Shown: one piece after another, positions 37,949-57,838 of the stretch | How the letters are laid out: each line of letters starts with the position of its first letter | Numbering within the stretch: the stretch's first letter is position 1 | Source of the DNA: Acheta domesticus | Taxonomy: Eukaryota > Arthropoda > Insecta > Orthoptera > Gryllidae | Length of the DNA stretch: 64,000 nt | NCBI GenBank assembly: GCA_031308135.1 | Contig: JAHLJT010000631.1 | Location: forward strand, 210,598,731-210,662,730 | Reading direction: 5' to 3' | Translations under genes and position numbers: made by a program | Notes under the pieces: model-generated | What the model saw: only the letters and a program-made list of their open reading frames with translations | Database searches by the model: none | Told to the model about the DNA's origin: nothing

Positions 37949-37960
37949 AGTAGGAGAAGT

Positions 37961-38236
37961 ACGCTACTTCTGGACCAGTGATGACGTCACGAGCCCCCGT
38001 GACGTCATGACCCCGTGACGTCATGACCCCGTGACGTCATGACCCCGTGACGTCATGACCCCATGACGTCACGACCGGGTGACGTCAGGGACCCGTGACG
38101 TCATGGCCGCGTGACGTCAGGACCCGAGGACGTCATGCCCGGGTGACGTCAGGACCCCGTGACGTCATGACCCCATGACGTCATGACCGGGGACGTCATG
38201 GTCGGGAGGACGTCAGCACTGGTCCAGAAGTAGCGT
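37961..38236. promoter_or_regulatory. Left terminal TGACGTCA array inside a 20-bp inverted repeat
   Basis: ACGCTACTTCTGGACCAGTG at 37961-37980 is exactly inverted at 38217-38236. Between them lie twelve perfect TGACGTCA palindromes plus three GGACGTCA variants, mostly spaced 16 bp (TGACGTCATGACCCCG). TGACGTCA is the CRE/ATF-CREB binding site in animals. The block could bind host bZIP factors, act as an origin or enhancer, or fold as a terminal hairpin. Function is inferred. Confidence 0.8.
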
Positions 38237-38355
38237 CGATGCGCCCGGGCCTGGCGTGGCGCCTGTTGCACACACGTCGACAGCGGGGGGTGTGAGCGCA
38301 CGTGAGTGGCTGTGGGGGTGGGTGGGGGGAGGAGGAAGAGGGGGAGGTGGTCTTC

Positions 38356-38432
38356 AAAAAGCCCGCTCGGCCGGGGCGCGAACCAGCGAGGTGCGGTGTG
38401 GGAGGCCGGCACGCTAGCCCTGCGCTACGGCA
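38356..38432 (-). ncRNA. tRNA-like Pol III unit in left TIR
   Basis: Mirror of 57371-57447. Read on the minus strand it has an A-box-like TAGCGCAGGGCTAGCG, a B-box-like GGTTCGCGCCCC 43 bp further on (as in tRNA genes) and a T5 terminator (AAAAA at 38356-38360 on the + strand). It points towards the element end. Acceptor and anticodon stems do not pair properly, so it is tRNA-like rather than a working tRNA gene. Confidence 0.55.
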
Positions 38433-38498
38433 GCAGGCTTAGAAGTGGAGGCGAGCGAGGGGATGGGAAGGTGCGCGCGCTTGGGCGGGGCGCGCGTG

Positions 38499-38680
38499 CG
38501 ACGGTGGCGCGCCCTGTGAGCGAACAGGGAAAGGGGACCGCGCGACGGTGGCGCGCCCTGTGAGCGGGCAGGGAAAGGTGACCGTGCGACGGTGGCGCGC
38601 CCTGTGTGCGGACGGGGGCATGCGACCGCGCGACGGTGGCGCGCTCTGTGAGCGGACGGGGGCATGCGACCGTGCGACGG
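38499..38680. repeat. 44-bp tandem array in left TIR
   Basis: CGACGGTGGCGCGC recurs at 38499, 38543, 38587 and 38631, with a partial copy at 38675, an exact 44-bp period. The units alternate GTGAGCGAACAGGGAAAGG and GTGAGCGGACGGGGGCATG endings. It generates overlapping Arg/Pro/Ser ORFs in several frames that are not credible genes. Confidence 0.9.
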
Positions 38681-38918
38681 CAGGGGAAGGAGAATGAGAA
38701 AAGGAAGACATGCAGTGGCGGCGGAGGAGCCGAGGGATGTCTTTGCACAGAGAGGTGTCACCAGAGACAAATAAAAAATCACAATGAAATGAATATGATG
38801 ATGAATATATTTGTCATACAATATTTATATATATATATATACATTACAAGAGTCTGTTTGTGAGCTGAGACTAGTTGGGGAAGGAAGGACGAAAAGAAAT
38901 ATGTCCTGGAAACACGCT

Positions 38919-39728
38919 TCATGGGAGTAGTTGGGACAGCCTCTCGTCCAACAGCCACCTCAGATCCCGTAGTGTTGTGAAACACGTACGGTTTCTGAGG
39001 AGGTGCGGCAAGGCCCCTAACAACGCCTCCGTGAAGGCGTGTACCTGCTCCCTGACATACTGCTCTTCGTCAGGGTTGGAGGCGTCGTGACCTGCAACGA
39101 CAGCGTAGGGGGTCAATGCGGGTAGTGTGGGGGTGGTGGACGGTGGAGTGTCCCAATTGGAACAGGGAGAAAGGCGAGGTGGGGGGAAAACAAAGTTGGG
39201 GCATGTCGTGGCGGGGAGGGTGGAGGCGGAGGAGATGGAGTGGGCCGGGGAGGTGGAGCGGAGGTGGGTGCAGAGCGGAGATGTTCCCGCGGTGGTGGTG
39301 ATATCAACGAGGGAAGGAGGAGGAGGAGGAGGAGCAGGAGCAGTATCAGGTAGAGGAGCAGGAGGAGGGGGTGAACGTGCAGGTGGGGGAGCAGGCGCAG
39401 CAGGTAGAGGAGCATCAGAAAGGCGAGTTGGGAGGAAAACCAAGTTGGAGCATGTCGTGTCGGGGAGGGTGGAGGCGGAGGAGATGGAGTGGGCCGGGGA
39501 GGTGGAGCGGAGGTGGGGGCAGAGCGGAGCTGCTGTCCCCGCGGTGGTGGTGATGTCAACGAGTACAGGAGGAGGAGCATCATGAGGAGGTGAACGTGCA
39601 GGTGGGGGAGCAGGAGCAGCAGGTAGAGGAGCATCATGAGGGGGTGAACGTGAAGGTGGGGGAGCAGGAGCTGCAGGTGAAGCAGCATCATGAGGAGCCG
39701 CCGCCGACGCGTAGGGCGACGTGGCCAT
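38919..39728 (-). CDS. Proline-rich protein of unknown function
   Basis: The frame is open from 40055 to 38919. I take the ATG at 39728 as the minimal start (269 codons). Upstream codons to about 39861 may also be coding, because GTGCTTGCAG there is a good splice acceptor. The middle is an Ala/Pro/Ser-rich low-complexity region. A ~248-bp DNA duplication gives two copies of a segment containing LVDITTTAGT and LRSTSPAHSISSASTLP. The last ~60 residues are not low-complexity and look helical (DEEQYVREQVHAFTEALLGALPHL in two pieces). No family recognised. Its position at the element end next to the OB-like gene suggests an early or accessory role, but that is a guess. Simple-sequence DNA on the other strand also gives ORFs, so coding status is not certain. 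Confidence 0.45.
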   Translation of the reverse strand: MATSPYASAAAPHDAASPAAPAPPPSRSPPHDAPLPAAPAPPPARSPPHDAPPPVLVDITTTAGTAAPLCPHLRSTSPAHSISSASTLPDTTCSNLVFLPTRLSDAPLPAAPAPPPARSPPPPAPLPDTAPAPPPPPPSLVDITTTAGTSPLCTHLRSTSPAHSISSASTLPATTCPNFVFPPPRLSPCSNWDTPPSTTPTLPALTPYAVVAGHDASNPDEEQYVREQVHAFTEALLGALPHLLRNRTCFTTLRDLRWLLDERLSQLLP

Positions 39729-40013
39729 GAGCCGGCGCAAGCGTACGACCGGGGTCGTGGTGGAGGCGGCAGTCGTGGAGCCGACCCGCCCGCGCTGGCG
39801 CAGGAGTCGGCCGACCTTACTGGCGTGGGCGGTGTTGCCGTGTCCCTTCCCCAACACGATCCTGCAAGCACAAAAAGCATAAGCATGTGGACCACAAAGC
39901 GACACGCTCAAAAACAGGGAAAAGTGGAAAAAAAAAATTAGAAACAGGACATGGGGGTGTTGGAAAGAATTGAGAGCCGCGCGGGTGGTATGCTCGAAGC
40001 CTACGGCCCGCGC

Positions 40014-40044
<31 letters not shown>

Positions 40045-40087
40045 TGAGCATGCATTGTGACAGAAAGGACAACAATAGTGGACCTAC

Positions 40088-56243: not shown

Positions 56244-56301
56244 ACCGCCACACCGACCACCACCGCCTCACTTCACTTCTACTTCTCGTCCTCTCGTCAT
56301 C

Positions 56302-56778
56302 ATGACGCAGCAACACGTTCACTACGTGCAGGGCCGCAAAGACGCCAGTGACGACATCGATCGGGCACTCACGGCGTACATACAGTTTGACAAGGAGAAT
56401 CTGCCCCTCTCTGCCGTTCCTTCGAACATTCTTCATTTGCCACCCTGTGTCTTCCTGCTCCTTCGTCCTCAAGAAGTGGACTCGGTGTGGAAACGACTAC
56501 CTGTGCACCTGCGTCGGGAGACCTGCTTCCAGGAGTGTCGCCCCTGTCGACGTCATCATCGGTCCCGTCTCGCTGACGTCTCGGATTTCGTCGCGCCACC
56601 TCTCGTCCGTGACTGTCAGCAGTGCCACGCCGCGACGTTGCGCAAGCGCACGAAACGTTCCCACGCCGCTGCCAACAGTGCCACCACCACCACCACCACC
56701 ACCACCACCCCCACCACCACCGTCACCGCCACCACCGGTGCCGCTCCGCGTGACGTTGTGCAACATGGTGTTTTGTAG
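56302..56778 (+). CDS. Cys-rich protein with poly-Thr tail
   Basis: 158 codons from ATG 56302. Residues ~33-110 are a third copy of the domain found twice at 48324-49415: hydrophobic LPPCVFLLL, VW-RLPVHLR, C--C (ECRPC), then PPLVRDCQQC. A poly-Thr run from (ACC)n follows, as in the other gene. Both genes thus share domain and tail. Likely zinc-binding; role unknown. It is the last gene before the right TIR. Confidence 0.6.
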   Translation: MTQQHVHYVQGRKDASDDIDRALTAYIQFDKENLPLSAVPSNILHLPPCVFLLLRPQEVDSVWKRLPVHLRRETCFQECRPCRRHHRSRLADVSDFVAPPLVRDCQQCHAATLRKRTKRSHAAANSATTTTTTTTTPTTTVTATTGAAPRDVVQHGVL

Positions 56779-56987
56779 TGTGTGTGTGTGTTCCCCCGAC
56801 CCTACCACGTGCCGTGAGAGACAGTCATCATTCAGCTTGCGCAACACACAGTGTGTGTGTGTGTGTGTGTGTGTTGCTGGTCATGACACATTGTGTGTGT
56901 GTGTGTGTGTGTGGACATGTGTGTGCTCAGCTCACAAAAAAAAAACTATTGTATTGTATATTGTTTGTTTATGATTTGTATATATAA
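56779..56987. repeat. (TG)n tracts at the 3' end
   Basis: Three (TG)n tracts (about 56779-56792, 56849-56873 and 56891-56912), then an A-rich stretch and AT-rich DNA up to the right TIR. They follow the last + strand gene. Confidence 0.85.
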
Positions 56988-57122
56988 GACAAATATATTC
57001 ATCATCATATTCATTTCATTGTGATTTTTTATTTGTCTCTGGTGACACCTCTCTGTGCAAAGACATCCCTCGGCTCCTCCGCTTCCACTGCATGTCTTCC
57101 TTTTCTCATTCTCCTTCCCCTG

Positions 57123-57304
57123 CCGTCGCACGGTCGCATGCCCCCGTCCGCTCACAGAGCGCGCCACCGTCGCGCGGTCGCATGCCCCCGTCCGCACACA
57201 GGGCGCGCCACCGTCGCACGGTCACCTTTCCCTGCCCGCTCACAGGGCGCGCCACCGTCGCGCGGTCCCCTTTCCCTGTTCGCTCACAGGGCGCGCCACC
57301 GTCG
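57123..57304. repeat. 44-bp tandem array in right TIR
   Basis: Mirror of 38499-38680 with the same exact 44-bp period and copy number. Confidence 0.9.
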
Positions 57305-57370
57305 CACGCGCGCCCCGCCCAAGCGCGCGCACCTTCCCATCCCCTCGCTCGCCTCCACTTCTAAGCCTGC

Positions 57371-57447
57371 TGCCGTAGCGCAGGGCTAGCGTGCCGGCCT
57401 CCCACACCGCACCTCGCTGGTTCGCGCCCCGGCCGAGCGGGCTTTTT
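57371..57447 (+). ncRNA. tRNA-like Pol III unit in right TIR
   Basis: A-box-like TAGCGCAGGGCTAGCG at 57376-57391, B-box-like GGTTCGCGCCCC at 57419-57430 and T5 at 57443-57447. Start-to-start A/B spacing is 43 bp, as in tRNA genes. It points to the right end of the element. Stems do not form a normal cloverleaf, so a tRNA-derived promoter or SINE head is more likely than a tRNA. Confidence 0.55.
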
Positions 57448-57566
57448 GAAGACCACCTCCCCCTCTTCCTCCTCCCCCCACCCACCCCCACAGCCACCCA
57501 CGTGCGCTCACACCCCCCGCTGTCGACGTGTGTGCAACAGGCACCACTTCAGCCACGCGCACATCG

Positions 57567-57826
57567 ACGCTACTTCTGGACCAGTGCTGACGTCCTCCCG
57601 ACCATGACGTCCCCGGTCATGACGTCATGGGGTCATGACGTCACGGGGTCCTGACGTCACCCGGGCATGACGTCCTCGGGACCTGACGTCACGCGGCCCT
57701 GACGTCACGGGTCCCTGACGTCACCCGGTCGTGACGTCATGGGGTCATGCCGTCACGGGGTCATGACGTCACGGGGTCATGACGTCACGGGGGCTCGTGA
57801 CGTCATCACTGGTCCAGAAGTAGCGT
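57567..57826. promoter_or_regulatory. Right terminal TGACGTCA array
   Basis: Mirror of 37961-38236, bounded by the same 20-bp inverted repeat, with ten perfect TGACGTCA sites. Confidence 0.8.
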
Positions 57827-57838
57827 ACTTCTCCTACT

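What the first reader, a model, noticed from the sequence alone, without database searches (positions are those of the whole stretch)
37949..57838. Complete, recent Polinton/adintovirus-like provirus with exact borders
Both ends, a perfect 6-bp duplication and near-identical long TIRs are visible, with the polymerase, integrase, ATPase, protease, core, fibre and PLA2 genes inside. A parvovirus-type PLA2, an adenovirus-type protease and a retrovirus-type integrase in one unit make it a mosaic virus genome fixed in an insect chromosome.
Basis: partly seen in the sequence, partly recalled or inferred. Interest (0 to 1): 0.9.

Follow-up and report, generated by a model that had tools for sequence, protein, structure and literature searches.

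The report
Defective Polinton provirus in animal DNA
A 20-kb virus-like element (a Polinton) sits in an animal, probably insect, chromosome with both ends perfect, but it has lost most of its shell gene, and its ends carry a striking row of likely binding sites for a host gene switch.

Summary
The borders are exact: a 19,890-bp unit (37949-57838), a 6-bp duplication TGCTAG, and inverted repeats of 867 and 851 bp (839 of 867 aligned columns identical). Inside are PolB, integrase, packaging ATPase, adenain-like protease, parvovirus-type PLA2, a core protein and a fibre-like protein. It is a Polinton/Maverick provirus. The organisms named among its relatives (3 of 120 listed integrases, 17 of 81 PLA2 proteins) are all insects.

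It is not coding-complete. Of the hexon only about the C-terminal 30% was found, directly behind a shortened protease. PolB is split by a frame change near 47.0 kb. The PLA2 frame has no ATG before the domain. No penton was found, but that test is weak. So "complete" holds for the borders only; "recent" is plausible; "fixed" is untested. PLA2 is already widespread in insect relatives.

The unexpected part is the ends. Each holds an inverted repeat enclosing 10-12 exact CRE/ATF sites (TGACGTCA), mostly 16 bp apart. CRE positions hardly vary between units; spacers do. I propose an amplified adenovirus-like ATF enhancer/origin.

The parts
37943..37948 (.). target-site duplication TGCTAG, left copy
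57839..57844 (.). target-site duplication TGCTAG, right copy
37949..38815 (+). left terminal inverted repeat
   Evidence: BLASTN of the two ends: 839/867 identical, 12 mismatches, 16 gap positions; 808-nt ungapped arm at 98%
56988..57838 (-). right terminal inverted repeat
37982..38200 (+). array of 16-bp repeats with 12 exact TGACGTCA (CRE/ATF) sites, inside a terminal inverted repeat
57603..57805 (-). same array in the right end, 10 exact TGACGTCA sites
41650..42066 (+). ankyrin-repeat ORF 1
   Evidence: Ank_2 1.5e-9
42435..43343 (+). paralogous ORF p1, function unknown
   Evidence: 39% identical to p2 over 138 columns, 3.2e-26; no Pfam match
43354..44148 (+). paralogous ORF p2, function unknown
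   Evidence: only a sub-cut-off low-complexity Pfam match
44169..44495 (+). ankyrin-repeat ORF 2
   Evidence: Ank_2 5.9e-10
44640..47036 (+). DNA polymerase B, first piece
   Evidence: PF03175 5e-13
47086..48327 (+). DNA polymerase B, second piece in another frame (open from 46885)
   Evidence: tblastn of P0201 residues 369-450 at 46957-47235, 8e-13; the piece alone has no Pfam match; motifs read by eye
48324..49113 (+). two tandem copies of a small Cys-rich domain (zn1, zn2)
   Evidence: 31% identical to each other, 7.7e-15; match the N-terminus of ant protein P0129
49758..50081 (-). C-terminal fragment of the double-jelly-roll major capsid protein (hexon)
   Evidence: PF21738 positions 220-314 of 316, 4.3e-14; positions 239-314 from the ATG-started piece, 1.4e-13; P0201 residues 583-671, 4e-13
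50082..50498 (-). adenain-like cysteine protease, C-terminus shortened
   Evidence: profile from L001+L002, 2e-12, positions 71-170 of 217; no Pfam match
50464..50823 (-). core protein
   Evidence: 54% to P0129 over 61 residues, 1.6e-14
50948..52102 (-). fibre-like protein, in the slot where L001 and L002 have the penton-like gene
   Evidence: Phage_T7_tail 2.2e-11; gene order compared by eye
52208..52918 (+). genome-packaging ATPase
   Evidence: Pox_A32 3.8e-9
52926..54491 (+). PLA2 domain joined to a PF26634-like protein; first in-frame ATG at 53301, behind the domain
   Evidence: PF08398 1.9e-12; P0121 (PF26634 + PF08398) 37% over 94% of the query; model matches entomopoxvirus PLA2 4.8e-4 and a densovirus VP1 2.5e-3; ATG check
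54494..55438 (+). integrase with chromodomain-like end
   Evidence: rve 3.8e-15; Chromo 0.0052, below cut-off; L001+L002 profile 1.6e-92
55641..56243 (+). ORF of unknown function behind the integrase
   Evidence: no Pfam match
56140..56778 (+). third copy of the Cys-rich domain (zn3)
   Evidence: 30% to zn1, 1e-5

Best explanation
The unit is a single integrated Polinton/Maverick provirus of the PLA2-carrying kind seen in insects, now defective as a virus. It entered the chromosome by an rve integrase that cut the target with a 6-bp stagger (ends and duplication shown; the enzyme step is inferred from the family). Replication in the intact ancestor would start at the two ends by protein priming with PolB (inferred from the family). 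PLA2 would breach the endosome during entry, as in parvoviruses (inferred). Hexon, core, protease and ATPase would build and fill the particle (inferred). The copy read here has lost most of the hexon, one end of the protease and the continuity of PolB, so it should not make a shell alone. The ends carry 10-12 CRE/ATF sites inside an inverted repeat. I think they act as a CREB/ATF-bound enhancer and replication end, an amplified form of the ATF site in adenovirus ITRs (inferred, less sure than the rest).
For: Exact duplication and long TIRs; gene set; organisms named among relatives are insects; order ATPase - accessory protein - integrase as in L002; fragmentary hexon by two routes, a Pfam profile and an ant protein; size, TIR length and 6-bp duplication inside the range reported for intact vertebrate Mavericks (12,723-24,620 bp, 46-1,447 bp; PMC8097293, passages); CRE array; ATF motif TGACGT in adenovirus ITRs, reported as important for growth of HAdV-C5 (PMC2794291, passages).
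Against: Many other ORFs are open, so the element is not heavily decayed. The frame change in PolB and the missing ATG of PLA2 could be assembly errors or, for PLA2, a spliced leader. Absence of the penton rests on a profile whose sister profile misses the core protein that is there, and the ATPase and hexon profiles see the element only weakly (4e-4 and 0.024). The host was not identified, and other copies could not be read because the genome search did not complete. Unit-to-unit counts in the CRE array are not independent events, and no TIR of any relative was available for comparison.
Confidence: 0.9

Rival explanations
1. The provirus is coding-complete in the animal, and the hexon loss, PolB frame change and missing PLA2 start are errors of the assembly.
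For: Near-identical proteins occur in other public read assemblies: P0001 differs from this integrase in 1 of 314 residues, and P0202 equals residues 1-262 of the fibre-like protein and then diverges, so the sequence exists in more than one form. Many other ORFs are open.
Against: About 220 of 316 hexon profile positions are absent from all six frames of 49.0-53.5 kb; a few wrong bases cannot do that, though a larger misassembly could. The stretch 39.8-44.7 kb holds no hexon match either.
Confidence: 0.08
2. The element belongs to a lineage that has given up its own shell: it moves inside genomes without making particles, or borrows the shell of a related virus.
For: Nine Polintons of a 72-element set lack MCP together with protease and ATPase, read there as a continuum between virus and transposon (PMC4028283, Findings section part 1). 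Here the integrase ORF is open and both ends are intact.
Against: Core, ATPase and fibre-like ORFs are still open here, most of the protease too, and PolB is interrupted. Only this one copy was readable.
Confidence: 0.12
3. The CRE array is a by-product of tandem duplication, and the hairpin follows from the palindromic unit; neither is functional.
For: Tandem arrays are common in terminal repeats (general knowledge), and the element is rich in simple repeats throughout.
Against: Between units, CRE positions differ in 2 of 112 cells and spacers in 26 of 112 (left), 3 of 104 against 28 of 104 (right). The array sits inside a separate inverted repeat at both ends.
Confidence: 0.35

Closest known systems
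Insect proteins with this PLA2 domain (named from Trachymyrmex, Temnothorax, Cyphomyrmex, Diploptera, Musca, Cotesia, Exocentrus, Trichogramma)
   Same: PLA2 domain with the same Ca-loop and His-Asp pair in the 6 aligned; core protein behind PLA2 in P0129 and P0200; a Cys-rich domain in front of PLA2 in P0129
   Different: Here PLA2 stands in front of a PF26634-like protein, an order also seen in P0121 and P0122 but reversed in P0123, P0124 and P0142. In P0129 and P0200 PLA2 is joined to the core protein, which here is a separate ORF on the other strand. Only protein models of these relatives were seen, no whole elements.
Adintoviruses (Starrett 2021 not held; definition from passages of PMC11071296)
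   Same: PolB, rve integrase with a chromodomain-like end, adenain, ATPase; some adintoviruses are said there to lack a penton or to have a truncated hexon
   Different: No full hexon was found, so the hexon-based test fails. The truncation reported there is after the first jelly roll; here the C-terminal part is what remains.
Vertebrate Mavericks (PMC8097293, passages)
   Same: 6-bp duplication, TIR length, total size
   Different: Those intact elements are described as intronless; here two stretches of 89 and 76 nt look like introns (inference).
Human adenovirus ITR (PMC2794291, passages)
   Same: ATF motif TGACGT inside the terminal repeat
   Different: A single putative site is described for the HAdV-A31 ITR; here 10-12 full palindromes, mostly at 16-bp steps.

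Membership tests
Polinton/Maverick | long TIRs and 6-bp target duplication | tested here: met
[quoted passage not shown]
   PF03175 5e-13 on the first piece; gene in two frames. The protein-primed subtype was not tested by profile; pieces of ant protein P0201 match along it by tblastn.
Polinton/Maverick | rve integrase | tested here: met
   3.8e-15; 1.6e-92 with the L001+L002 profile
Polinton/Maverick | FtsK-like packaging ATPase | tested here: met
   Pox_A32 3.8e-9, 36.8 bits over cut-off 22.8; profile from L002 alone 4e-4
Polinton/Maverick | adenovirus-like protease | tested here: met
   2e-12, C-terminus shortened; no Pfam match
Polinton/Maverick | double-jelly-roll major capsid protein (common, not universal: 46 of 72 full, 13 split in PMC4028283) | tested here: not met
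   only profile positions 220-314 of 316; not a required feature of the element class, since 13 of the 72 there had neither a full nor a split gene (72 minus 46 minus 13)
Polinton/Maverick | penton | tested here: inconclusive
   best match in the element E 1.9, in the flanks 2.3; the sister profile for the core protein also misses a gene that is there
Adintovirus (definition in PMC11071296) | hexon recognisable by BLASTP | tested here: not met
   C-terminal fragment only
Adintovirus (definition in PMC11071296) | PolB with N-terminal OTU-like domain | tested here: inconclusive
   a Cys and a His at fitting places seen by eye; no profile or fold was run
Adintovirus (definition in PMC11071296) | integrase with C-terminal chromodomain | tested here: inconclusive
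   Chromo 17.1 bits, below cut-off 25.1; the L001+L002 profile aligns to position 378 of 387, which takes in the L002 chromodomain (3.5e-8); 9 of 120 listed relatives carry PF00385
Parvovirus-type PLA2 | Ca-loop and His-Asp pair | tested here: met
   PF08398 1.9e-12; residues invariant in 6 of 6 aligned proteins; fold matches to entomopoxvirus PLA2 (4.8e-4) and densovirus VP1 (2.5e-3); no PDB fold match at 0.001
Parvovirus-type PLA2 | phospholipase activity | not testable with these tools
   needs an assay

The most novel reading that the evidence does not exclude
The provirus ends are a host-signal switch. Each TIR can fold back on itself and holds 10-12 CREB/ATF sites, so that cAMP or stress signalling in the host turns on viral transcription and replication from both ends: an inducible animal provirus built on an amplified adenovirus-ITR element. 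In addition, the fibre-like protein stands in the penton's gene slot and may be the vertex protein.
Probability: 0.35. Interest if true: 0.75.

Novelty: new member of a known kind. Interest (0 to 1): 0.45.

Why it matters
Maverick particles had not been observed by 2021 (PMC8097293, start of the abstract as shown in the listing), and what would wake such proviruses is open. A TIR with an array of CRE/ATF sites gives a concrete trigger that a reporter can test. The element also shows that perfect borders do not mean a complete virus: most of the shell gene can be gone while both ends still look fresh.

Tried and rejected
Relatives in viral contigs: ATPase, integrase alignment and PolB first piece gave none. 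The PLA2 alignment gave 6 loci with short matches (L007-L012), used only for base counts. A CRE-array pattern gave 0 matches there. Genome contigs with the integrase alignment gave 6 loci (L001-L006). L001, L002 and L005 read as stray animal Polinton DNA in bacterial bins and gave the profiles; L003 and L004 were profile targets; L006 (31% over 94 residues) was left out of the profiles. Of L005, split in several frames, one hexon piece and one penton-like piece were used, the others not joined.

Fibre fold: single-sequence model at mean pLDDT 34, not used. PLA2-PF26634 model: residues 31-100 at 86-94, much of the rest poor; the PDB search gave 0 matches at E<=0.001.

PF21738 does not recognise the hexons of L001, L002 and L005, so those names, like penton and core in these loci, are by eye or recalled. 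The core profile misses the core protein of the element (best 0.65), the accessory-protein profile finds nothing (0.54), the hexon profile sees the fragment at 0.024.

Empty site: joined flanks (300+300) matched only themselves in the window, so no empty copy was available. The right flank further out (about 58379-58842) is a repeat with copies in the left flank.

Paper searches (10 in all). Those on Polinton with CREB (78), on terminal repeats with CREB and the CRE octamer (75), on Polinton with microsatellites (71) and on adintovirus or Polinton with phospholipase listed no paper whose title or abstract start reports a CRE array in Polinton ends. Only open-licence papers are held, so this proves nothing. 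Two look-ups were not held.
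Full report
Observation. The unit 37949-57838 is bounded by TGCTAG on both sides (37943-37948 and 57839-57844). Its ends are inverted repeats of 867 and 851 bp that align with 839 identical columns of 867, 12 mismatches and 16 gap positions. A second alignment shows 13 mismatches before the repeat ends, 7 of them within 19 columns. An 808-nt ungapped arm is 98% complementary. G+C is 0.57 inside and 0.39 in each flank. Chance does not make this.

Genes. Pfam finds family B polymerase (5e-13), rve integrase (3.8e-15), Pox_A32-like ATPase (3.8e-9), Phage_T7_tail-like repeats (2.2e-11) and the end of a double jelly roll (1.4e-13), ankyrin repeats in two ORFs and PLA2 (1.9e-12). 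The protease has no Pfam match but matches a profile built from L001 and L002 at 2e-12, while the best ORF of the flanks scores 1.3. The core protein matches ant protein P0129 (54% over 61 residues, 1.6e-14) and P0200 (51% over 84 columns, 2.2e-14). Chromo is below its cut-off (17.1 against 25.1 bits).

Relatives. The integrase has 3,737 relatives at E<=0.001 among 6,559 candidates, of which 120 were listed. The best, P0001, differs in 1 of 314 residues; the next full-length one has 62%. The PLA2 query has 81 relatives among the 8,000 candidates that were scored; 80 carry PF08398, which the query itself contains, and 5 carry PF26634 as well. An organism is named in 3 of the 120 integrase rows and 17 of the 81 PLA2 rows; all are insects (ants, a cockroach, a fly, wasps, a beetle). 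The other rows name none. The fibre-like protein has 1 relative, P0202, among 8,000 scored candidates, identical over residues 1-262. The host was not identified; a Sina-like ORF at 26020-26859 is below Pfam's cut-offs.

What is broken. The hexon is present as profile positions 220-314 of 316 only, and independently as residues 583-671 of P0201. It follows the protease stop directly, and the protease match ends at position 170 of 217. A single deletion that took the end of the protease and about the first 70% of the hexon explains both (inference). Six frames of 49.0-53.5 and 39.8-44.7 kb, stops as X, hold no further hexon. The rest of the element was searched only with the L001/L002/L005 hexon profile, which sees even the known fragment weakly (0.024), and ORF by ORF with Pfam. 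PolB is open in two frames that overlap at 46885-47036, with conserved motifs on both sides (by eye). The PLA2 frame (52926-54491) has its first ATG at 53301, behind the domain; an ATG lies at 52969 in another frame. A spliced leader is possible.

Controls. L001, L002 and L005 come from bacterial bins but carry Polinton gene sets. In L002 the order is ATPase, an accessory protein, integrase, penton, core, hexon, protease. Pfam supports the integrase and, near the cut-off, ATPase and protease of L002; the names penton, core and hexon are by eye or recalled. In the window the order is ATPase, PLA2-PF26634 and integrase on one strand, and fibre-like, core, protease, hexon end on the other. The fibre-like gene thus stands next to the core gene, where L002 has its penton. 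The profiles find L004, which was not used to build them, at 5.7e-90 (hexon), 4.5e-38 (penton) and 6.2e-32 (protease). But they miss the core in the element and see its ATPase only at 4e-4, so a divergent penton cannot be excluded.

The ends. TGACGTCA occurs 12 times in 37982-38200, 10 times in 57603-57805, once elsewhere in the element (40258) and never in 44,104 bp of flank. The window has 23 against 1.07 expected in shuffles. Spacing of the GACGTC cores is 16 bp in 11 of 14 left-hand steps and in 8 of 12 right-hand steps. Across units, the eight CRE positions differ in 2 of 112 cells and the spacers in 26 of 112 (14 units, left), 3 of 104 and 28 of 104 (13 units, right); Fisher p about 7e-7 and 8e-7. 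One right-hand unit with a changed core was placed by hand at its 16-bp step, and the innermost core on each side, which lies at the inner arm of the inverted repeat, was left out. Units share ancestry and the two ends are copies of each other, so p is only a guide. A 20-bp stem closes the array. As single-stranded DNA the left end folds at -106.4 kcal/mol (shuffles -58.1, sd 3.8, z -12.6) and the right at -104.4 (z -11.1); 0 of 200 shuffles reach either. Part of this comes from the palindromic units themselves. The comparison loci L001-L012 have 0 or 1 such sites each, but the five tested show no inverted repeats, so relatives' ends were not compared. Adenovirus ITRs carry an ATF motif TGACGT described as important for growth of HAdV-C5 (PMC2794291, passages).

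Mechanism. Shown: ends, duplication, gene content, losses, CRE array. Inferred from family knowledge: integrase-made duplication, protein-primed replication, PLA2 in entry, ATPase packaging. Inferred here: CREB/ATF control of the ends.

Verdict. A defective Polinton provirus, new member of a known kind. It would work like an adintovirus-type provirus but fails the hexon test for an adintovirus. Interest lies in the ends rather than in the gene mosaic.

Noticed in passing
window 40014-56913: (CA/GT) runs of 6 or more units: 13 in the element, 0 in 44,110 bp outside it, 0 in L001-L012. Several lie between ORFs (by eye). Three of 15 runs of 5 or more units directly follow a GTRAGT donor-like word.
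   Followed up: partly
window 44633-44721 and 48706-48781: Two stretches with donor-like word, GT run and acceptor-like end that would keep the frame (89 and 76 nt, which also lists other possible pairings). If they are introns, this differs from vertebrate Mavericks, described as intronless. No transcripts were available.
   Followed up: partly
window 52926-54491; P0121-P0124, P0142: PLA2 and PF26634 are joined in both orders among relatives, as if two neighbouring genes had fused more than once.
   Followed up: no
window 48324-49113 and 56140-56778: Three copies of a small Cys-rich domain, also found in front of PLA2 in ant protein P0129. Function unknown.
   Followed up: no
window 41650-44495: Two ankyrin ORFs flank two paralogous ORFs; they may be host-interaction genes (inference).
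   Followed up: no
window 40925-41230: Two tandem copies of a 152-bp unit, 94% matches.
   Followed up: no
L001, L002, L005: Polinton contigs filed in bacterial bins (titles name a Nomurabacteria bin, a tube-worm symbiont and a mussel symbiont); probably stray animal DNA.
   Followed up: partly
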